A DNA stretch of 48,069 nucleotides from positions 1 to 48,069 of the IMG/VR virus record IMGVR_UViG_3300010151_000020; one strand, written 5' to 3'. Position numbers and translations under genes: made by a program. This DNA is from a virus. Positions 28,003 through 47,913 of this stretch are shown here, one piece after another (within the stretch, counting starts at the first letter, position 1; each line of letters starts with the position of its first letter). Under the pieces are notes generated by a model. It was not told where the DNA came from and ran no database searches. It was given only the letters and a program-made list of their open reading frames with translations.

Positions 28003-28022
28003 GTAGAAGATAGCTAAGTAAC

Positions 28023-28062
28023 AAGAAGAGCCAGGAAATAATCTTCCTGGCTCTTCTTTTAT
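28023..28062 (+). terminator. Rho-independent terminator after the major capsid gene
   Basis: AAGAAGAGCCAGGAA (28023-28037) and its perfect complement TTCCTGGCTCTTCTT (28044-28058) form a 15-bp stem with a 6-nt loop, followed by TTAT. It lies 20 nt after the gp23 stop and should limit read-through from the capsid operon. Confidence 0.92.
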
Positions 28063-28064
28063 CT

Positions 28065-28080
28065 CTATATACTGTAGAGG
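28065..28080 (+). promoter_or_regulatory. Candidate promoter and ribosome site for the neck operon
   Basis: CTATATACT (28065-28073) directly follows the terminator and resembles the CTATAATA-type boxes elsewhere in the window. AGAGG (28076-28080) is 7 nt before GTG 28088. CTCTA and TAGAG can also pair around the box. A new transcript must begin near here if the terminator works. Confidence 0.45.
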
Positions 28081-28087
28081 TTATATC

Positions 28088-28300
28088 GTGAAATATAAAT
28101 ATACAGGGAAGATCCCAGCAGTGCTACTAATAAATGATGCTTTAGTTTCAGTGGCTCCTGGGGAATTAATAGAAGGTGCAGGTCTTCCTTCCTCTCATTT
28201 TGCAGCGGTGATGCCCACCTCTCCAAAGAAAAAGGTTGTTAAAAAAAAGGAGAACAAAGTAGATGCCACTAACACCGACACTAGCAGCATGGGGAAATAG
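28088..28300 (+). CDS. Small virion-region protein, 70 aa
   Basis: It starts with GTG after a clear AGAGG. The product begins KYTGKIPAVLLINDALVSV then APGELIEG and ends in a Lys-rich tail. A 'l-x-x-P-G-e-x-I-e' pattern also appears loosely in the 58-aa protein at 30517-30693. The C-terminal 38 nt overlap the gp13-like gene in another frame, so the two are probably co-translated. The function is unknown; its place between capsid and neck genes suggests a small structural or connector part. Confidence 0.6.
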   Translation: MKYKYTGKIPAVLLINDALVSVAPGELIEGAGLPSSHFAAVMPTSPKKKVVKKKENKVDATNTDTSSMGK

Positions 28301-33511: not shown

Positions 33512-33546
33512 AGCCCAGCCTAGAGCCTATCTGGGTTGGGCTTTTT
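33512..33546 (+). terminator. Rho-independent terminator after the tail tube gene
   Basis: AGCCCAGCC (33512-33520) pairs with GGTTGGGCT (33534-33542), with one G-U pair, followed by a T-run TTTTT (33542-33546). It closes the neck and tail operon. Confidence 0.85.
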
Positions 33547-33550
33547 CCTT

Positions 33551-33564
33551 CTATAATATAACAC
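33551..33564 (+). promoter_or_regulatory. CTATAATATA box abutting the start codon of the 892-aa gene
   Basis: TATAAT (33552-33557) ends 7 nt before ATG 33565. No Shine-Dalgarno lies between, and the preceding terminator ends at 33546. A -10 element here would start RNA at or next to the ATG, predicting a leaderless mRNA. The CTATAATATA core is identical to the box before gp32. Confidence 0.6.
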
Positions 33565-36243
33565 ATGGATTATTATTACGCACTTTTAGATAGTTACAAG
33601 CTTCTTAAAAAGCGGAAGCTTAAGTTAACTATTAATGAGCAGGAAGGTGAGGGGATGGGGGACGCGGAGCTTCTTACTTTTTTATTAGCTGGAGCTAACG
33701 GGCATACCTCTGAAAACCAGAACAAAGTGACTAGTTCCATTGGATTATTTAATCCAATGGGTGAAAAGGGTAAAAATGGTGAGGTCGCAGTGCCCGATGC
33801 TAAGTCTGTAACAGGTACATTGGGACAGAACGCAGATAGGCTTGTGAAGGGTGGTGTATTAGTACCTTATGAGCAACTGAATCAGACTGGGAAAAACATT
33901 ATAGATCAACTTAGAAGTGGAGAAGGTGGTTCAGCGGAGAAATCAACTGATGATAACGAGAGGCCCGAAGACCCCGAAGACCCCGCAGTAAGACAGGTGC
34001 TAAACAAGGCAGCAGAGGCTTGGACTAACCTCACAGCTAAAGGGGCTGGGAAAGATGAAGAGGTTTTTGATCCCGCTATGTTCCCAGGGCTAAAGGTTAA
34101 GAAGGGTCGCGCTGCTAAATCTGTTGTAAATATCCTCGCTAAAGGTTCTACGATAACGGGGTTCGGGGGGGACAAACCAGAGGAGGTAGTTCAACAGATG
34201 ATGAGTACTCCTTGTGATGGAGAGTCAGAGGAGGATATAGCAAAGTGTAATGCCTCCAAGGTTGAGGCAGGGAGAGCCTTGGAGTCGTTGGGGAGAGTCT
34301 TTCAATCTTTTAAGGATCAAGGAGGAAATATTGACATAAATACTCCCGAAGGAGAACAGTTAGCTAATGAATTACGAAGACTCAATCCTCAGCTTGCTAC
34401 TACCGACTCAGGGGTAAAGTTTGGGGAGTATTATGTCTTCTACAAGCAGGAATCTTCTTCGGAGACAGATGTTTTAAGAAATACAGTAGATCAACTTAAT
34501 GCAGCCGCTGAAAAATATAATGAGGAGTGGGACGGAGCAACTGAAGGTAAGATTCCTCTAGTGGAGTCGCAGGCAAGGGTGGTGACGGGGAAAACTAATA
34601 GAGCTATGCGTGGAACGGCAGCGGAGGTAATCGTTGGTCTAAGTGTAACCATGATGAATCTAGCTAAAAACCTCGTAGGAACTAAGGGTGATAAAAAGGG
34701 TAGAGGAAAAGTGATGAGCACTGCTAAAAAGGAAGTTACGAGACTTTTAGATGCTGCTAAGAAGAAAAAGGGTGGAAAATCTACCTTAACTGAAATCCGA
34801 GACATGTTTAAGTTAGGTGTAGATGCTATGTTAGGAGATGTATTAGCTAAGAGTGATACAGATGTGGCAAATATCAACTATGTTCAAGCGTTGGGACAGT
34901 TCTTTGCTGATAAAGGTATGGATGATAAAGTTCTTAAGGAATTTTTAACTAAAGCTGGGCAGGACGTTGGACCTGGGTTAGTATTATGCGCTTTTGCTAA
35001 TCGACATTTTGATTACCAATTATTTGGGAAGGATCTCATCCCTGAGAATGTCCAACAAGAAGGTCAGACTGATTCGACAGCCCTAGGGGCTAAGGTAGAT
35101 GTAGGGGTTAACTATGATGCAAAGGATTGTGAGAAGGTAAAGGCTCATTATGATAGCTTGTTGAGTGATGAACAGCGGAATCACTATGCTTTGGGCGACT
35201 GCTCTGAAAATGATGATCAGGAAAATTTAGGGGTGGGGATGGATGATCTAACTCAAAAGATGGATAGAGACCCAGAAGATAAATCCCAGGGTCAGAAGTG
35301 TTATGTGGGAGTTGAGATTAAAACCTTAGATAATCTAAGATCTACGAAGGGTTACGGTCAATCCTCTAATAATAGGATGAGTAAGCTTTTTGATAAAGGA
35401 AACAAACCTTGCTCCAATGACCTGAATACAAGCGACGAAAAAGGTAGCTCTGTTGATTTTATTAAGCTTCATGAGCGTAGGATGCGAAATTGTGGAGTAA
35501 GTGATGAGGCAGCGTGTAAGTTCTCTCAAACTATGGATAAAGCTGTGGAAAAGATACGCACAGGGTTAAATATGAAGGAAGATAAGTGGGGTGATGGGAA
35601 GGCTATCACTCTGAAGGATAGAAAATCCTTATTATCTCAGTGGGCTACGAATAAAGGGGGCGTTTCCAAGCTAAAGGGAGATGCTAAGTTGAGGTATGAA
35701 GGTGCTTTACGACACATTCAAAATAAAAAACAGCCAAAGGGTTTGCCTGAGAAATATAGAGGTGATGCGTATCAGGCTACTGCCATAGGGAATGAGTTGT
35801 GGCAAATTGAATTAGGTGATAACATAGAGAAGAATTCAAAAAAAGGTAAGATTACGGGGGATGCTCAAGACTATCTCTTAAGCAGGCTTCATCTTGGGGC
35901 TGGTTCAACCGAGGAGACGGGCAAGGTAGGACGAATGCTGGATGATGATGTTCAAACCTTTGGGTTAAATAACGCTGAAATTATGGGTTGTATAGGTGGG
36001 GTCAAGAGCGGTGAGTATGACTTGGTGCGTAAAGGAAACACCTACAAAGTTTTGTATACTAAAGGTGCTAACAAAGGAAAATCTCGTATGGAAATCTCAG
36101 CAGAGCGAGGTAACTTTGAAATTTCAGGTGGTAAGGGTACTGGCAATAAGATAGAAGAAGGTACTCTTCAACATTCAGATGACCTGCTCTTAGAGTTCCT
36201 CAAAGGACAGCAGATGCTTCTCAATCAGTTAATGAAACCATAA
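33565..36243 (+). CDS. Unknown 892-aa Lys/Glu-rich protein
   Basis: The protein is not recognised. It has a short N-terminal segment (MDYYYALLDSYKLLKKRKLK) ending in LTINE before Gln, a possible gp21-type cut at residue 25. A disordered, charged region spans about 100-190. A mostly helical middle follows, with basic runs (KKEVTRLLDAAKKKKGGKS). The end is amphipathic (LLLEFLKGQQMLLNQLMKP). A short leader peptide with an (I/L)-x-E end recalls T4 internal head proteins that are targeted to the capsid and trimmed, but this is inference. It lies where T4 has portal gp20, which it does not resemble. Transcription likely begins at the box just before the ATG. Its last 15 nt overlap the minus-strand nuclease gene. 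Confidence 0.6.
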   Translation: MDYYYALLDSYKLLKKRKLKLTINEQEGEGMGDAELLTFLLAGANGHTSENQNKVTSSIGLFNPMGEKGKNGEVAVPDAKSVTGTLGQNADRLVKGGVLVPYEQLNQTGKNIIDQLRSGEGGSAEKSTDDNERPEDPEDPAVRQVLNKAAEAWTNLTAKGAGKDEEVFDPAMFPGLKVKKGRAAKSVVNILAKGSTITGFGGDKPEEVVQQMMSTPCDGESEEDIAKCNASKVEAGRALESLGRVFQSFKDQGGNIDINTPEGEQLANELRRLNPQLATTDSGVKFGEYYVFYKQESSSETDVLRNTVDQLNAAAEKYNEEWDGATEGKIPLVESQARVVTGKTNRAMRGTAAEVIVGLSVTMMNLAKNLVGTKGDKKGRGKVMSTAKKEVTRLLDAAKKKKGGKSTLTEIRDMFKLGVDAMLGDVLAKSDTDVANINYVQALGQFFADKGMDDKVLKEFLTKAGQDVGPGLVLCAFANRHFDYQLFGKDLIPENVQQEGQTDSTALGAKVDVGVNYDAKDCEKVKAHYDSLLSDEQRNHYALGDCSENDDQENLGVGMDDLTQKMDRDPEDKSQGQKCYVGVEIKTLDNLRSTKGYGQSSNNRMSKLFDKGNKPCSNDLNTSDEKGSSVDFIKLHERRMRNCGVSDEAACKFSQTMDKAVEKIRTGLNMKEDKWGDGKAITLKDRKSLLSQWATNKGGVSKLKGDAKLRYEGALRHIQNKKQPKGLPEKYRGDAYQATAIGNELWQIELGDNIEKNSKKGKITGDAQDYLLSRLHLGAGSTEETGKVGRMLDDDVQTFGLNNAEIMGCIGGVKSGEYDLVRKGNTYKVLYTKGANKGKSRMEISAERGNFEISGGKGTGNKIEEGTLQHSDDLLLEFLKGQQMLLNQLMKP

Positions 36244-36762
36244 ACTATCGTGATCTTCTAAGAGTTCATCAAATTTATATATCCTGTATGAACTTTTAGA
36301 CATAGGAGGTTCTTCTTTATATATTTCTATGTATGTCTGGAACTTATTTGTTTGTACATAGTTAGGTACTATTGCTAAAGTAGGTTGTCTATCCTGTTTA
36401 AATATTATCATTGGAATCTTATCACACTTGCTTGAATCTTTTTCACATTGGTTTATAAATCCCCAGAAGTCTGAGCTATAATTATATAAACTATATAAGT
36501 TTTGATTATTGTATCCTTTTTTACATTCGATACAGTATTTAAAATTTGTTGGTGTGATTAAATCCCCATAAATTTTTAGGTGCTCTGGGAGAGTGTGGGT
36601 GGTGGCGAATGCTCCTGATCCAGGACTTCTTGAAAATTCTGTGGTATTGAATCTATCATTAAGTGTGCTGGCGATCTTGCGTTCAAAAGTGCTGCCCTTA
36701 GCCCTGCTGTTCTTGCGTTTGGGCTTTCCTTTAAGCGGAGATAAATCGTAATTATCTTTCAT
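36229..36762 (-). CDS. PD-(D/E)xK nuclease, resolvase-like
   Basis: The 177-aa product has the nuclease signature GSTFERKIASTLNDRF, then FSRSPGSGAF, then GDLITP followed by YCIECKKGY. The Asp of GDL and the Glu and Lys of ECK form the PD-(D/E)xK metal site, and the ER helix supplies the leading Glu. This order is found in RecU/Hjc-type Holliday junction resolvases and related phage endonucleases. T4 uses gp49, an unrelated fold, so this would be a functional substitute. It is the first of three lone minus-strand genes. GAGG lies 9 nt before its ATG, and its 3' end overlaps the end of the 892-aa gene by 15 nt. Confidence 0.75.
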   Translation of the reverse strand: MKDNYDLSPLKGKPKRKNSRAKGSTFERKIASTLNDRFNTTEFSRSPGSGAFATTHTLPEHLKIYGDLITPTNFKYCIECKKGYNNQNLYSLYNYSSDFWGFINQCEKDSSKCDKIPMIIFKQDRQPTLAIVPNYVQTNKFQTYIEIYKEEPPMSKSSYRIYKFDELLEDHDSLWFH

Positions 36763-36771
36763 GTTTGTTAA

Positions 36772-36792
36772 CCTCGTACTATAATAGTTAGA
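36772..36792. promoter_or_regulatory. Divergent AT box between nuclease and 117-aa genes
   Basis: The 30-nt gap holds CTATAATAG (36779-36787). On the plus strand TATAAT ends 7 nt before ATG 36793 with no Shine-Dalgarno (leaderless prediction). On the minus strand the same bases read CTATTATAG, followed by GAGG (36775-36772) before ATG 36762. One near-palindromic box could serve both genes. Confidence 0.55.
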
Positions 36793-37146
36793 ATGACCGA
36801 AGAAAAGAAGGCTAAGTTCACTTTCAAGTTAGATAAGTGGCAAATAAAAGTTACCTATAGGAGTAAAGGACGAATGAAATTCCAAATTAAACTAAACAAA
36901 GAAGAGGCAGAAGCCTTTTCAAATTTCTCTAACAGCGTTAAGCCTCATGAAATTAGCATGGAAGACTTCACGCGATCTATCTTTTTCGCAGGTATCCGTT
37001 CCCTAGAGGAGCAGCTTACCAATAACCTCATTACTCACATGGAAGAGAATCGAGAAGATTATGAAGCGTCAGGGTTCACCTTTGATGATGCTGGAAAGCT
37101 CACAGGGGTTGAGGATAGTAGCGGCTCAGTTGAAGTACTTGAGTAA
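36793..37146 (+). CDS. Unknown 117-aa small protein
   Basis: The product begins with Lys-rich beta strands (KFTFKLDKWQIKVTYRSKGR, KFQIKLNKEEAEAF), has a central helix (FTRSIFFAGIRSLEEQLTNN), and ends in an acidic tail (DDAGKLTGVEDSSGSVEVLE). The acidic tail after a compact beta/alpha body recalls ssDNA-binding or protein-interaction tails, but no family is recognised. It has no Shine-Dalgarno; the TATAAT box just upstream suggests a leaderless start. The stop overlaps the thioredoxin-like ATG (TAATG). Confidence 0.6.
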   Translation: MTEEKKAKFTFKLDKWQIKVTYRSKGRMKFQIKLNKEEAEAFSNFSNSVKPHEISMEDFTRSIFFAGIRSLEEQLTNNLITHMEENREDYEASGFTFDDAGKLTGVEDSSGSVEVLE

Positions 37147-37457
37147 TGTATAATCCTGTCTTTCTCCAAAGTGAGAATGAGCTAAATAAGATTCTTAAAG
37201 CTCAGAAGCGCACGGGACAGCACGTTTCTATCCTTTTCGTCTCTTTGTGGGATCAGTGGTGTAATGACTTGGTTGACACAATCAAGGCGACCGCACTAGA
37301 CGAAGACAAGAAGCTTTATATAGTTAACAGCTTTACGATGCCTCATGCGTTTGTTATCTTTAACACTACTAAGCTACCGCATCTGCTTAAGCTTGGGAGA
37401 GACAAGGTGAGATCGGAAGATTATTTACCTTTGGTTTATAAAGGCTTAGGTTTATAG
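37146..37457 (+). CDS. Thioredoxin-fold-like protein with a single active-site-type Cys
   Basis: The 103-aa product follows the thioredoxin layout: an N-terminal helix, the strand HVSILFVSLW, W-x-x-W-C-N-D at residues 35-41, the strand KLYIVNSF, and a TMP at residues 64-66 in the place of the cis-proline loop, followed by AFVIFN. Only one cysteine (C39) exists, so a dithiol C-x-x-C reaction is not possible; a monothiol, structural or binding role is more likely. It sits just upstream of PolA-type polymerase genes. The final 22 nt overlap the minus-strand sigma gene. Fold call moderate; function unknown. Confidence 0.55.
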   Translation: MYNPVFLQSENELNKILKAQKRTGQHVSILFVSLWDQWCNDLVDTIKATALDEDKKLYIVNSFTMPHAFVIFNTTKLPHLLKLGRDKVRSEDYLPLVYKGLGL

Positions 37458-37789
37458 TTTCCTTTCAATTCGGAGTACTCTTCTATTTTTTTTTCGTACT
37501 TCTTATTTTTAGTATAGAGAAGCTTTAAGTTGTTTACAATTACTGTTGTGAAATAATTAAATGCGCTTCCTCTATTAGGGTTGAAGTTTTTTAGAGTTTT
37601 GAGAATAAGTAAAAAACATTCCTGCTTCGCATCATCTTTTTCGATATTGAATTTGAAGCTCTCAATAATGTTTGTTATTAATAAATCAAAAAGCTCCATC
37701 AATTCCTCTTCATATTTTTCATTTTCTTGAAGGTATAAGGGAATCAATTCTTCAAACCTTTTGTTATTTATATAATAATTTTTACTCAT
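37436..37789 (-). CDS. gp55: Late sigma factor, gp55-like
   Basis: The 117-aa product holds a sigma-70 region-2-like core at about residues 50-92: EKDDAKQECFLLILKTL, then NFNPNRGSAFNYFTTVIVNN. The 'D-D-x-x-Q-E', 'F-x-P-x-R-G-x-x-F-x-Y-F' and N positions match region 2 of sigma factors, and the lack of regions 3 and 4 matches T4 gp55, which directs RNA polymerase to TATAAATA late promoters without a -35 element. It is shorter than T4 gp55 (185 aa). A TATAAT box on its strand (37800-37795) ends 5 nt before ATG 37789, so it may be leaderless. It is the second lone minus-strand gene. Confidence 0.78.
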   Translation of the reverse strand: MSKNYYINNKRFEELIPLYLQENEKYEEELMELFDLLITNIIESFKFNIEKDDAKQECFLLILKTLKNFNPNRGSAFNYFTTVIVNNLKLLYTKNKKYEKKIEEYSELKGNYKPKPL

Positions 37790-37805
37790 AGTATATTATA
37801 GAGAG
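37790..37805. promoter_or_regulatory. Divergent AT box between gp55-like and polymerase genes
   Basis: Only 16 nt separate the two ATGs. On the minus strand TATAATATACT leads straight into ATG (5 nt after TATAAT). On the plus strand TATATTATA (37792-37800) is followed by GAGAG and ATG 37806 (8 nt after TATATT). Neither side leaves room for a normal leader with a spaced Shine-Dalgarno, so both mRNAs are probably leaderless or nearly so. Confidence 0.6.
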
Positions 37806-38828
37806 ATGAGAGAGTTAGATAATTTATATTCAGGGCTTAACCCCTTATGTTCTAATGAGTTATGTGAGGGGTGTTCTATTCTTGCACAAAGTAAGCCCGA
37901 ATACTCCTACATGGATTACGAGTCTCTTCGGCAAGGAGATGTTCTCTTTGTCGCTGACTCCTTTAGGCATAGGTATGGGAAAATGTCTCCCTTCTCTAAG
38001 AAAGAGCGTGAGCTTCTTGAGGAGTTCTACCCAGGCAAGTCCCAATACACAGCGTCCGTTAAGTGTCCTTCAGTGAAAGAGGGAGATATGATTCCTGCTA
38101 ATATGAATCTATGTAGAAAGCACTTGACTGCGACTATTGAGAAGGTGAAGCCGCGCCTTGTTTATGCTTGTGGTAATTTGTCTATGAAAATGTTAGTAAA
38201 GAAGAGCGGTATCATGGACAAGAGAGGAAATTCTTATGAATATGTTACTGATTCTGGGCACACTTGTATTGTTGTCCCTATTTATCACCCTTATGCTGTC
38301 CTTAAAGAGCCTCGTCACAGGTACTTGTTCGAAACGGACATCCGAAATGCGTATGAAAAGTATGTCCTTGGGAAAACAAACCAAGGAAACTTCGAGTACA
38401 AAGTCCTCACAGAGATCAAAGATGTGGAAGTATTGGGGGAGATGTTAAAGGATTCGGAGGAGACAGTCGCAGTAGATATTGAAACGACTGGGCTTAATTT
38501 CTTAACTGATAAGATTCAAACGATTGCTATCTCCTCCCAAGAAACTAATTGGGCTATCCCCTTAGATCATAAGGACAGCCCGTTTAGAAAGGGGATGCCA
38601 CACTATGGTAAGGTATGGAGTATCCTTCGTAAGATCCTAGAGAACCCCAGGAATAAAAAGGTCTTTCATAACGCCAAGTTTGATATGAAGTTTCTTTTAG
38701 AGCATGGTATTGCTGTTAAGAATGTATGGGACACTAAAATAATGCACCATTTTCTTAATGAGACTGCTCCCAAAGGTTTGATGGATTTGGTTAAGCTTTA
38801 CTTTTCTGATGAGTTGGAGAATCTTTAA
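37806..38828 (+). CDS. polA: DNA polymerase I piece 1: UDG-like domain plus partial 3'-5' exonuclease
   Basis: The 340-aa product has a family-4 uracil-glycosylase-like domain (residues about 10-190). Four cysteines (C20, C23, C87, C103) are spaced as in its iron-sulphur cluster (C-x2-C-x63-C-x15-C), followed by VYACGNLSMKML and YHPYAVL. The usual GEAPG-type catalytic loop is replaced by VADSFRH, so glycosylase activity is doubtful. A DnaQ-like proofreading domain follows, with ExoI VAVDIETTGL (D224, E226) and ExoII FHNAKFDMKF (D293). It stops at L340, before ExoIII, which is in the gene at 39294. UDG fused to PolA is known in phages such as SPO1. The last 38 nt overlap the antisense lipoprotein gene. 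Confidence 0.82.
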   Translation: MRELDNLYSGLNPLCSNELCEGCSILAQSKPEYSYMDYESLRQGDVLFVADSFRHRYGKMSPFSKKERELLEEFYPGKSQYTASVKCPSVKEGDMIPANMNLCRKHLTATIEKVKPRLVYACGNLSMKMLVKKSGIMDKRGNSYEYVTDSGHTCIVVPIYHPYAVLKEPRHRYLFETDIRNAYEKYVLGKTNQGNFEYKVLTEIKDVEVLGEMLKDSEETVAVDIETTGLNFLTDKIQTIAISSQETNWAIPLDHKDSPFRKGMPHYGKVWSILRKILENPRNKKVFHNAKFDMKFLLEHGIAVKNVWDTKIMHHFLNETAPKGLMDLVKLYFSDELENL

Positions 38829-39270
38829 GTATTTCTTCTAAAGCAGAGAGCCTAACATCTTGCTCCCCGTCCCGTGCATCAATCTCTTCTTGGGATACCG
38901 TGTTATGGATGGCTCCAAACTTCTTAAACCAAGTCCTACCCTTCTTAGTGAAGAGGGGGAGGAATACAAAGAGGACTAAGTACCAGTACCCTAGGGTCTT
39001 AATCAAACCCCCTGTCTCATGTAGGGTAGATGCGGTAGTTCCTTGAACAGGTCCTGCCCCAGCTACCTGCCCTACAATTGCTGCGGGGCTCGTTGTGGGA
39101 AAGATCATCTCTGATACCATCACGCCCCCTGCTGCCCCTGCTGCTACAGCCGCAGGTTCTGGAACAAAAGCCGCAACCGCTCCCCCTCCTAAAGCCCCTC
39201 CTACTGCGTGTTTAATAGTAGAGCAGCTTGCTAGGCACACTAAGACCAATATAAAAGCTAAATTTCTCAT
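38791..39270 (-). CDS. Lipoprotein with one membrane helix, inserted in the polymerase
   Basis: ATG 39270 (AGGAG 6 nt upstream) is preferred to ATG 39285. The 159-aa product opens with a lipoprotein signal MRNLAFILVLVCLASC: charged start, hydrophobic core and lipobox LASC, with acylation at C16. An Ala/Gly/Pro-rich stretch (17-85) precedes a membrane helix (about 92-108, LGYWYLVLFVFLPLF), then KKGR and a hydrophilic tail. A lipid anchor plus a membrane helix recalls unimolecular spanins or envelope-modifying phage proteins, but no family match is claimed. The last ten or so codons are antisense to polymerase codons, so the C-terminal residues (SPTHQKSKA) were probably gained on insertion. It is the third lone minus-strand gene. 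Confidence 0.7.
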   Translation of the reverse strand: MRNLAFILVLVCLASCSTIKHAVGGALGGGAVAAFVPEPAAVAAGAAGGVMVSEMIFPTTSPAAIVGQVAGAGPVQGTTASTLHETGGLIKTLGYWYLVLFVFLPLFTKKGRTWFKKFGAIHNTVSQEEIDARDGEQDVRLSALEEILKDSPTHQKSKA

Positions 39271-39279
39271 GTTTTCTCC

Positions 39280-39293
39280 TATCATATATAGCC
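39280..39293. promoter_or_regulatory. AT box between lipoprotein and second polymerase piece
   Basis: TATCATATATAG (39280-39291) precedes ATG 39294 by 2 nt with no Shine-Dalgarno; TATCAT ends 8 nt before the ATG. On the minus strand the same bases read CTATATATGATA, followed by AGGAG and ATG 39270. This is the third divergent gap of this kind within 2.6 kb. Confidence 0.45.
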
Positions 39294-39773
39294 ATGCTGA
39301 CTGTAAACAACCCTAAAACTTTTGATTGGGCAAACATGAGTTTGTCTGATTGCCTAGAAGGTAATGCTGCTGATTCTTATTTCACTCTTAAGATTTTTGA
39401 TCTGATTTTTGATAAGTTAAAGGAGATGAGGATGGGTCCAATCCTAACGGAATTAATTATGCCTGCCCTTCCTATGTTTGTGGAAATGGAGCATCGAGGA
39501 ATGGAAGTCTCTGAAGATCAGCTTCAGGTAGTAGGCAAGCAACTAAGACATATGAATATTCATGAAGAAGATTTGCTATACTCCTTTGACGAAGTTCAAT
39601 CAGAAGATAATCTATCCTCAAATAATGATTTGATTGAGATTTTATATACACGGGAAACCGCTTTTGAGTTATACCCTCCCGACCGAACAGCGAAAGGCAC
39701 ACCTTCTGTGTCTGCACCTACCTTAAAGTTACTACTGTCTCAAATTGAAGAGGAGTTGAAGAAGCGTGTCTAA
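39294..39773 (+). CDS. polA: DNA polymerase I piece 2: ExoIII end of exonuclease and part of thumb
   Basis: The 159-aa product continues the polymerase. Residues 17-34 (LSDCLEGNAADSYFTLKI) match the ExoIII region, with D27 as the metal-binding Asp; the usual Tyr four residues before it appears as Gly. Next come the helix IMPALPMFVEMEHRGMEVSE, which begins the thumb, and TPSVSAPTLKLLL, the PolA 'P-S-x-S-x-x-x-L' element. Removing the 474 nt between codon 340 of piece 1 and codon ACT at 39300 restores an uninterrupted polymerase frame. The first two codons (ATG CTG) belong to the inserted DNA. The stop overlaps the GTG start of piece 3. Confidence 0.8.
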   Translation: MLTVNNPKTFDWANMSLSDCLEGNAADSYFTLKIFDLIFDKLKEMRMGPILTELIMPALPMFVEMEHRGMEVSEDQLQVVGKQLRHMNIHEEDLLYSFDEVQSEDNLSSNNDLIEILYTRETAFELYPPDRTAKGTPSVSAPTLKLLLSQIEEELKKRV

Positions 39774-40851
39774 ATGGAATCATCGTGATGAGGGAAAGAA
39801 AATTAGTGAGTCCGTCCTCGCAGGAAAATCTACAGAAGAGCTAAGAAATTCGCAAAAGTTTATCAAGAGTTTGTTAGACCTGCGAAAGTCTCAAAAACTG
39901 GAGAAGACTTATATTAAAGGTACGACCAATGCGATTGAGTATAATGAACAGCCTAAGGTCTTTGTAGATTACAGGTTTGATGGGACTGCAACAGGTCGCC
40001 TCTCTTGTGCTGCTTATTCTGCTAAAAAAGCGATGGGGGTATCTTTTCATACGCTTCCCCGAGAAACGAAGAATAATATTCGCAGCCTGTTTGTTTCACC
40101 TAAAGGGTATAAGTTTATTACTATAGACTACGCAGCGATGGAGCTAAGGGTTCTAGCCCACATCGCTAAGGAGGGGAATATGCAAAAAGCTTTTAATGAA
40201 GGTGCTGATTTGCATACCTACACGGCTCGACTCCTCTTCAACAAGCAGAACATTACTAAGTCTGAGAGGCAGATCGCTAAAACTGTGTCCTTCTTAATTG
40301 TATATGGAGGAGGACCTTTCAACCTCGCAGAAACCACTGGGATCTCCATGAAACGAGCAGAACAAATCATTAAGAACTATCAGAGGGTGTACCCTGGTAT
40401 TTTTGAGTACATGGAGTTCGTGAATAATTATATTAAGACTAATAAGTATGCTTATACTATCTTTGGAAGGAGGAGGAACCTTCCTGATGTAGACTCTAAA
40501 GATTTTAAGGTGGTCAATCGTGCGCTCCGTCAAGGGCTTAACTTCACTATCCAGTCTACTGCCTCGGACATTCTTTTATGTGGGCTCTTAGGGGCTCACA
40601 GAAGGCTCAGAGAGGAAGGTATCCAAGCCTACCCAGTAGCTACTGTCCATGACAGTATCGAAGTGGTATGTAAGGAGGAAGATTTAAGTAAGTGTTTGGA
40701 GATTCTGTACGATGAGTTGGTGAATTATCCTTTTATGAAGGAGAAGTTTAACATTCATTTCGATGTGCCTATGAAGATTGATGCGGAGGTTGGAATATCT
40801 TTCGGGGAAGGTAAAGAGGTTAGCTTTAATAATGGAGTTCCTATCCTATGA
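39766..40851 (+). CDS. polA: DNA polymerase I piece 3: palm and fingers
   Basis: It starts with GTG 39766, with GAGGAG 11 nt upstream, overlapping the previous stop by 8 nt. The 361-aa product has the complete family-A active site: FDGTATGRLS (residues 71-80), motif A ITIDYAAMELR (D121, E126), motif B ERQIAKTVSFLIVYGG (R168, K172, F176, Y180) and motif C VHDS (H295, D296, S297). The usual Glu after the motif-C Asp is Ser. Phe at the position equal to E. coli 762 predicts discrimination against dideoxynucleotides. Piece 3 alone could bind a primer-template but lacks the front of the thumb, so it probably works with pieces 1 and 2. Confidence 0.92.
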   Translation: MSKWNHRDEGKKISESVLAGKSTEELRNSQKFIKSLLDLRKSQKLEKTYIKGTTNAIEYNEQPKVFVDYRFDGTATGRLSCAAYSAKKAMGVSFHTLPRETKNNIRSLFVSPKGYKFITIDYAAMELRVLAHIAKEGNMQKAFNEGADLHTYTARLLFNKQNITKSERQIAKTVSFLIVYGGGPFNLAETTGISMKRAEQIIKNYQRVYPGIFEYMEFVNNYIKTNKYAYTIFGRRRNLPDVDSKDFKVVNRALRQGLNFTIQSTASDILLCGLLGAHRRLREEGIQAYPVATVHDSIEVVCKEEDLSKCLEILYDELVNYPFMKEKFNIHFDVPMKIDAEVGISFGEGKEVSFNNGVPIL

Positions 40852-47876: not shown

Positions 47877-47913
47877 CTATAATATACTAACTGCCACAAC
47901 TAACCATAGGAGG
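47877..47913 (+). promoter_or_regulatory. Promoter and ribosome site for the gp32-like gene
   Basis: CTATAATATACT (47877-47888), with TATAAT at 47878-47883, matches the box before 33565 and the minus-strand box of the sigma gene. Here a leader of about 32 nt follows, with AGGAGG (47908-47913) 7 nt before ATG 47921. This is a conventional arrangement that contrasts with the abutting boxes. Confidence 0.65.

What the first reader, a model, noticed from the sequence alone, without database searches (positions are those of the whole stretch)
33551..39296. TATAAT-like boxes at a fixed 5-8 nt before start codons without Shine-Dalgarno: predicted leaderless transcripts
At 33552 (892-aa gene), 36780 (117-aa gene), 37800 on minus (sigma), 37792 (polymerase piece 1) and 39280 (polymerase piece 2) a -10-like hexamer ends 7, 7, 5, 8 and 8 nt before ATG. 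That is the normal -10 to +1 distance, so RNA would begin at the AUG. By contrast gp32, gp23, gp18 and gp19 have spaced Shine-Dalgarno sites. The clustering in one 6-kb region suggests a distinct expression class.
Basis: partly seen in the sequence, partly recalled or inferred. Interest (0 to 1): 0.72.

Follow-up and report, generated by a model that had tools for sequence, protein, structure and literature searches.

The report
Leaderless promoters in a T4-like phage
In a widespread group of uncultured T4-like phages, a short near-palindromic promoter box sits so close to the start codons of key genes that their messenger RNAs probably begin at the start codon itself, and one such box of about nine base pairs appears to serve two genes facing in opposite directions.

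Summary
In detail: all five boxes lie where stated, 5-8 nt before ATG. Within the window only the three exact TATAAT copies beat chance (3 against 0.2 expected). Comparison with relatives settles it. In 22 contigs TATAAT peaks sharply 5-8 nt before starts (26 starts; median 2 for permuted hexamers), in the same genes. The motif is CTATAATA(G), with no -35 or extended -10. Box genes lack Shine-Dalgarno sites (1/37 against 215/463). The 892-aa gene's box directly follows a terminator. Sigma and polymerase start codons lie back to back, mostly 14-17 bp apart, around one palindromic box, conserved in 36 further non-redundant loci. Polymerase piece 2 has the box in 8/8 genomes where an opposite-strand gene cuts the operon, 0/28 otherwise. 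Leaderless (or 0-3-nt-leader) mRNAs from -10-only, partly bidirectional promoters are the best explanation. The 'distinct class' reading needs refining: the same box, further upstream, also serves SD-led genes (gp32, terminase, baseplate hub) and tRNA genes. Which sigma reads it, host or phage gp55-like, is open. No RNA 5' ends were available. New variant of a known kind.

The parts
33512..33546 (+). Intrinsic terminator of the gp18-gp19 operon (13-bp stem, T tract), ending just before the box of the 892-aa gene
   Evidence: fold -23.7 kcal/mol, z -4.6, and the same hairpin in 5 relatives tested; conserved order terminator-box-ATG in orthologs
33551..33559 (+). Promoter box CTATAATAT, hexamer 33552-33557, 7 nt before ATG 33565
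   Evidence: 13 of 15 orthologs in cluster 7 have the box, nearly all at gap 5
33565..36243 (+). 892-aa protein of unknown function, predicted leaderless mRNA
   Evidence: N-terminus MDY[FY]xxLLxSYxxLKKR conserved from this ATG; no Pfam or PHROG hit
36229..36762 (-). PDDEXK / RusA-like endonuclease gene, divergent from the 117-aa gene
   Evidence: PF24608 4e-27, phrog_244
36772..36775 (-). Shine-Dalgarno GAGG of the endonuclease gene, starting about where the minus-strand RNA from the shared box would begin
   Evidence: absent in G017/G019, where this side too is predicted leaderless
36779..36787 (.). Near-palindromic box CTATAATAG; plus side 7 nt before ATG 36793, minus side reads CTATTATAG and feeds the endonuclease gene
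   Evidence: 17 of 20 orthologs carry the box
36793..37146 (+). 117-aa gene, predicted leaderless (or 0-2-nt leader) mRNA
37146..37457 (+). 103-aa gene, overlaps the previous stop codon (TAATG), translational coupling, no box
37436..37789 (-). gp55-like sigma factor (single sigma region 2 domain), predicted leaderless
   Evidence: phrog_234 late sigma in 10 of 14 family members; hhalign to S-CAM4 gp55 E 2.8e-6; model resembles sigma region 2, weak Foldseek E-values
37790..37805 (.). 16-bp intergenic stretch between the two divergent start codons with one shared box: minus CTATAATAT (37801-37793), plus TATTAT 37794-37799 / TATATT 37792-37797
   Evidence: box at essentially all of 36 further non-redundant loci, 31 of 37 with start codons at most 19 bp apart
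37806..38828 (+). DNA polymerase A piece 1 (UDG-like plus 3'-5' exonuclease), predicted leaderless
   Evidence: PF03167 and PF01612
38791..39270 (-). Opposite-strand lipoprotein-like gene inserted between polymerase pieces 1 and 2, start at 39270 with SD GGAGA (39279-39275)
   Evidence: insertion status across relatives
39279..39290 (.). Box CTATCATATATAG region between the inserted gene and polymerase piece 2; TATCAT 39280-39285 is 8 nt before ATG 39294
   Evidence: box present only in genomes with an opposite-strand insert
39294..39773 (+). DNA polymerase A piece 2, predicted leaderless here; translationally coupled (TAATG) to piece 1 in relatives without the insert
47877..47885 (+). Same box CTATAATAT, 37 nt before the gp32 start (47921) with an SD AGGAGG between: same promoter, leadered mRNA
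   Evidence: gp32 identified through orthologs

Best explanation
CTATAATA(G) is a -10-only promoter box of this T4-like phage group. At the five starts its distance to the ATG equals the normal distance from a -10 element to the first transcribed base, so RNA begins at the A of AUG or 1-3 nt before it, and ribosomes start on leaderless mRNA. Because the box is a near-palindrome (CTATWATAG), it can fire both ways, and three divergent gene pairs in the region each share one box. Where the opposite gene needs a leader, its SD begins about where that RNA would start. The same box placed 18-40 nt upstream gives ordinary SD-led mRNAs (gp32, terminase, baseplate hub) and tRNA transcripts. Shown by sequence: the motif, its position, its conservation, the absence of SD and -35. 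Inferred: the transcription starts, bidirectional firing, leaderless translation, and which sigma factor reads the box.
For: (1) Position peak: exact TATAAT at gaps 5, 6, 7 in 14, 7, 4 starts, background about 0.5 per position; 26 against a median of 2 for permuted hexamers. (2) The flanking C (33/38) and A (34/38), not used in the search, are conserved; no -35 or extended -10 signal. CTATAATA is the top intergenic 8-mer, 32 regions against 1.1 expected. (3) Ortholog conservation by gene: 892-aa 13/15, 117-aa 17/20, sigma 13/13; gp18, gp23 and polymerase piece 3 none. (4) SD in 1/37 box starts against 215/463 others, P 1e-8; 19/19 gap-5 sites have a pyrimidine at -1, the initiator preference, P 9e-7. 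(5) Further loci: 32 of 36 non-redundant sigma starts have TATNAT, 28 of them at gap 5 and 27 of those with T at -1; columns -12 to -5 are conserved, -4 to -2 are not, -1 is. (6) Sigma and polymerase start codons are at most 19 bp apart in 31/37, with 0/37 SD on the polymerase side, mostly gap 6 or 5. (7) Natural experiment at polymerase piece 2: box in 8/8 opposite-strand inserts, 0/22 contiguous, 0/6 co-directional inserts. (8) Terminator ends directly before the box of the 892-aa gene, so transcripts from upstream should stop there. (9) Gaps 5-8 put the A 6-9 bp below the -10 element, the range used by E. coli RNA polymerase (8, 55, 29, 7%; PMC5730371).
Against: No RNA 5' end was measured. 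The commonest gap (5) needs initiation 6 bp below the box, only 8% of starts in E. coli; initiation at position 7 would remove the A of AUG, so this polymerase must favour the nearer site. On the polymerase piece 1 side some relatives have the strict box at gap 2-4, too close, and would need an overlapping weak TAnnnT hexamer at gap 8-9. Starts come from my own gene caller. Near-identical contigs were collapsed, but orthologs are not fully independent.
Confidence: 0.84

Rival explanations
1. The boxes are promoters, but the mRNAs carry real leaders from additional promoters further upstream; the box near the ATG is secondary, and initiation is by non-SD, A/T-rich leaders.
For: Many genes of this phage have no SD (248 of 463 non-box starts lack one), so non-SD initiation and coupling occur here anyway.
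Against: The 892-aa gene has a conserved terminator immediately upstream. For sigma and polymerase piece 1 an upstream promoter would have to lie inside the opposite gene. The fixed spacing and the -1 pyrimidine have no reason under this view.
Confidence: 0.1
2. The box is read by the phage's own gp55-like sigma (a variant of the T4 late promoter), so sigma and polymerase form a self-activating bidirectional unit.
For: The sigma is a gp55 relative with only a region 2 domain; T4 late promoters are an 8-bp TATA box without a -35 (PMC2988020); the box lacks a -35 and also precedes genes that are late in T4 (terminase, baseplate hub, UvsW).
Against: The main structural operons of the window (gp18, gp23) lack the box and some have a different CTATATA-like element; sigma itself must be made before it can act; TATAAT is also the bacterial consensus.
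Confidence: 0.4
3. The box is read by the host primary sigma factor (early or middle promoter), as TA-led leaderless genes are in many bacteria.
For: Exact bacterial -10 consensus; genes served include middle-type T4 genes (UvsX, gp32, polymerase, sigma); TA-led genes exist in many phyla (PMC3160421).
Against: No -35 or extended -10 compensates; the strong C before and A after the hexamer are not bacterial consensus features (general knowledge).
Confidence: 0.5
4. Chance AT-rich hexamers near starts.
For: In the window alone TATATT 37792 and TATCAT 39280 are not significant.
Against: Family-wide statistics and conservation.
Confidence: 0.01

Closest known systems
TA-led (leaderless) genes of bacteria, e.g. 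Deinococcus-Thermus and Actinobacteria (PMC3160421; PMC12340547)
   Same: TANNNT -10 box about 10-12 bp upstream of the start, no SD, -35 not needed in Deinococcus
   Different: Here in a T4-like phage, with an extended 8-9-bp near-palindromic box shared by divergent genes; host unknown
Thermus phage phiYS40 leaderless transcripts (Sevostyanova et al. 2007; only the reference was seen; content from memory)
   Same: A large tailed phage with a set of leaderless mRNAs
   Different: Unrelated phage and host; no paired divergent leaderless genes known to me there
T4 late promoters and gp55 (PMC2988020)
   Same: 8-bp TATA-type -10 without -35; gp55-like sigma encoded
   Different: CTATAATA instead of TATAAATA; T4 and S-CAM4 starts show no peak at gap 4-9, T4 mRNAs are leadered; main structural operons here lack the box
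Bidirectional promoters with symmetric -10 elements (Warman et al. 2021; PMC10268837)
   Same: Near symmetry of TATAAT lets polymerase start both ways, start sites typically 18 bp apart
   Different: Here both products are mRNAs of essential-type genes, and the two start codons themselves are 14-17 bp apart

Membership tests
TA-led leaderless genes | TANNNT about 10-12 bp upstream of the start | tested here: met
TA-led leaderless genes | no Shine-Dalgarno site | tested here: met
   1/37 against 215/463
TA-led leaderless genes | mRNA 5' end at the start codon | not testable with these tools
   no RNA data; geometry and -1 pyrimidine only
T4 late promoter | -10-only box without -35 | tested here: met
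T4 late promoter | consensus TATAAATA | tested here: not met
   CTATAATA
T4 late promoter | precedes the main structural operons | tested here: not met
   no box at gp18, gp23, gp19 orthologs
T4 late promoter | recognised by gp55 | not testable with these tools
   a gp55-like protein is encoded
Symmetric bidirectional promoter | near-palindromic -10 readable on both strands | tested here: met
   CTATWATAG
Symmetric bidirectional promoter | divergent starts about 18 bp apart | tested here: inconclusive
   start codons mostly 14-17 bp apart; transcription starts not mapped
gp55 late sigma family | sigma region 2 domain and N-terminal aromatic motif | tested here: met
   direct match to T4 gp55 itself is weak
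gp55 late sigma family | C-terminal sliding-clamp-binding tail | tested here: inconclusive
   family is 113-117 aa, C-terminus not conserved
Sigma70 -35/-10 promoter | -35 element or extended -10 | tested here: not met

The most novel reading that the evidence does not exclude
A phage lineage in which one near-palindromic 9-bp -10 box, read by the phage's single-domain gp55-like sigma, drives two leaderless mRNAs in opposite directions, one for that sigma itself and one for the DNA polymerase, with the two AUGs only 14-17 bp apart: a minimal self-activating switch linking late transcription and replication.
Probability: 0.3. Interest if true: 0.8.

Novelty: new variant of a known kind. Interest (0 to 1): 0.62.

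Why it matters
If true, leaderless translation is a conserved expression mode in an abundant group of T4-like phages (444 sigma relatives in IMG/VR), not a rarity of repressors or thermophile phages. The sigma/polymerase junction would be about the smallest two-gene promoter known, with overlap of both -10 elements and no room for leaders. It also gives a natural test of how operons survive opposite-strand insertions: a bidirectional box restores the downstream gene without needing an SD. Start prediction in such genomes should use the box.

Tried and rejected
Chance AT-richness: rejected by position, permutation and phylogenetic tests. Wrong start codons: rejected for the 892-aa gene, sigma and polymerase piece 1, whose N-termini are conserved from the ATG. 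A general T4-like property: T4, S-CAM4 and RM378 show no such peak. Leaderless class equals promoter class: rejected, since the box also serves leadered genes and tRNAs. Host from relatives in genome contigs: only one weak hit, a Treponema MAG at 33% identity, not informative. Rfam search of the window: nothing. No sequence match to solved structures for sigma worth using. phiYS40 paper not held. My first frame check of the inserts was off by one base and was redone; the query for the inserted gene was also out of frame and is not used.
Full report
What was checked. The window is a 48,069-base linear virus record with T4-like head and tail genes, a family A DNA polymerase split over three ORFs, and a small sigma factor.

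Chance within the window. Over 41 starts, exact TATAAT at gap 5-8 occurs 3 times against 0.21 in dinucleotide shuffles (0 of 1000). Allowing one mismatch gives 6 against 2.5 (P 0.037). Among 1492 other ATGs, 0.4% have an exact box. So the three exact boxes are real on window evidence alone; the two variants (37792, 39280) need comparison.

Relatives. 25 related contigs were found through polymerase piece 3; 21 of them were fetched whole. Over 500 non-redundant starts, exact TATAAT peaks at gaps 5, 6 and 7 (14, 7 and 4 starts) against about 0.5 per position elsewhere. TATAAT at gap 5-8 occurs at 26 starts; the median over permutations of the hexamer is 2. By ortholog group the box is found in 13/15 for the 892-aa gene, 17/20 for the 117-aa gene, 13/13 for sigma and 10/21 as called for polymerase piece 1, and in none for gp18, gp23 or polymerase piece 3. 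Several missing cases were mis-called starts that show the box once corrected.

The motif. Aligned on the hexamer, 38 sites give CTATAATA(G): C before in 33/38, A after in 34/38, with no information at -35 and no extended -10. CTATAATA is the most enriched intergenic 8-mer, 32 regions against 1.1 expected. The core is a near-palindrome, CTATWATAG.

Why leaderless. Box starts have an SD in 1/37 cases against 215/463 for the rest (P 1e-8), and all 19 gap-5 sites have a pyrimidine at -1 (P 9e-7), the usual base before a transcription start. Gaps 5-8 put the A of ATG 6-9 bp below the -10 element, which is where E. coli RNA polymerase starts (8, 55, 29 and 7%; PMC5730371). In the 892-aa gene a strong terminator hairpin ends just before the box, so RNA from upstream should stop and a new start has less than 20 nt of room.

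Two genes, one box. Sigma and polymerase piece 1 are divergent. Their start codons lie 16 nt apart in the window and 10-16 nt in the 20 contigs where both starts could be read. A second search gave 36 further non-redundant loci (some of these contigs overlap the first set): 32 have a TATNAT box before sigma, 28 at gap 5, 27 of these with T at -1; the other four have a close variant or a box at gap 10. Columns -12 to -5 are conserved, -4 to -2 are not, and -1 is. On the polymerase side 23 of 37 have the box at gap 5 or 6, none has an SD, and 31 of 37 pairs have start codons at most 19 bp apart. Symmetric -10 elements are known to fire both ways, with starts about 18 bp apart (PMC10268837). The endonuclease/117-aa pair also shares one box; there the endonuclease side usually carries an SD that begins about where its RNA would start, and in two relatives it too is predicted leaderless.

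A natural experiment. Polymerase pieces 1 and 2 are adjacent in many relatives, with overlapping stop and start (TAATG) and no box. In others a gene is inserted between them. Of 36 non-redundant loci, 22 are contiguous (0 boxes), 6 have a co-directional insert (0 boxes) and 8 have an opposite-strand insert (8 boxes). In the first contig set the same rule holds. The box therefore appears when the downstream gene loses its upstream transcript, as expected of a promoter.

Refining the 'distinct class'. The same box lies 18-40 nt before SD-led genes: gp32 (window 47877; relatives), terminase large subunit and baseplate hub, and just before tRNA genes, while UvsX and UvsW relatives have the leaderless spacing. 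So the box is a general promoter of the phage group, and leaderless spacing is one use of it. The clustering in 6 kb reflects alternating strands. The main structural operons lack this box; some have a CTATATA-like element and an SD.

Who reads the box. The sigma is a gp55 relative: 10 of 14 family members match the late sigma PHROG, hhalign to S-CAM4 gp55 gives E 2.8e-6, the match to T4 gp55 is weak, and its model (pLDDT 81) resembles sigma region 2 structures, with weak Foldseek E-values. T4 late promoters are likewise -10-only (PMC2988020). But TATAAT is also the bacterial consensus, and structural operons lack the box, so host sigma is equally possible. This is left open.

Weak points. No RNA data. 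Gap 5 is the least favoured end of the E. coli window; initiation one base later would destroy the AUG. On the polymerase side a minority of relatives have the strict box at gap 2-4 and would need an overlapping TAnnnT at gap 8-9. The literature search covered open-access papers only, so novelty is stated with that limit.

Noticed in passing
window 33565-36243: Gene after gp19 encodes a protein with a conserved N-terminus (MDY[FY]xxLLxSYxxLKKR) and a very variable remainder (about 330-1300 aa in relatives), no family hit; possibly a virion protein with a targeting peptide.
   Followed up: partly
window 38829-39293 and relatives: The junction of polymerase pieces 1 and 2 is an insertion hotspot for different genes in either orientation.
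   Followed up: partly
G014:C1:22725-22768 (L052), G010:C1:22142-22187 (L043), G019:C1:22459 (L046): Upstream of a glycosyltransferase gene the box is followed directly by a hairpin and a T tract before the ATG: a start, a possible attenuator, then the gene.
   Followed up: no
window 28003-28088 and relatives: A second element, CTATATA, follows a terminator and precedes an SD before a small gene near the capsid genes; may be the late promoter of structural genes.
   Followed up: partly
intergenic regions of relatives: CTATCATTGA-like word is enriched between genes; no explanation.
   Followed up: no
window 37806-40851: Family A DNA polymerase is split into three ORFs, the first fused to a UDG-like domain.
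   Followed up: no
G025 (L062, L063): Contig close to G017/G019 but full of frameshifts and stops, probably sequencing errors.
   Followed up: no
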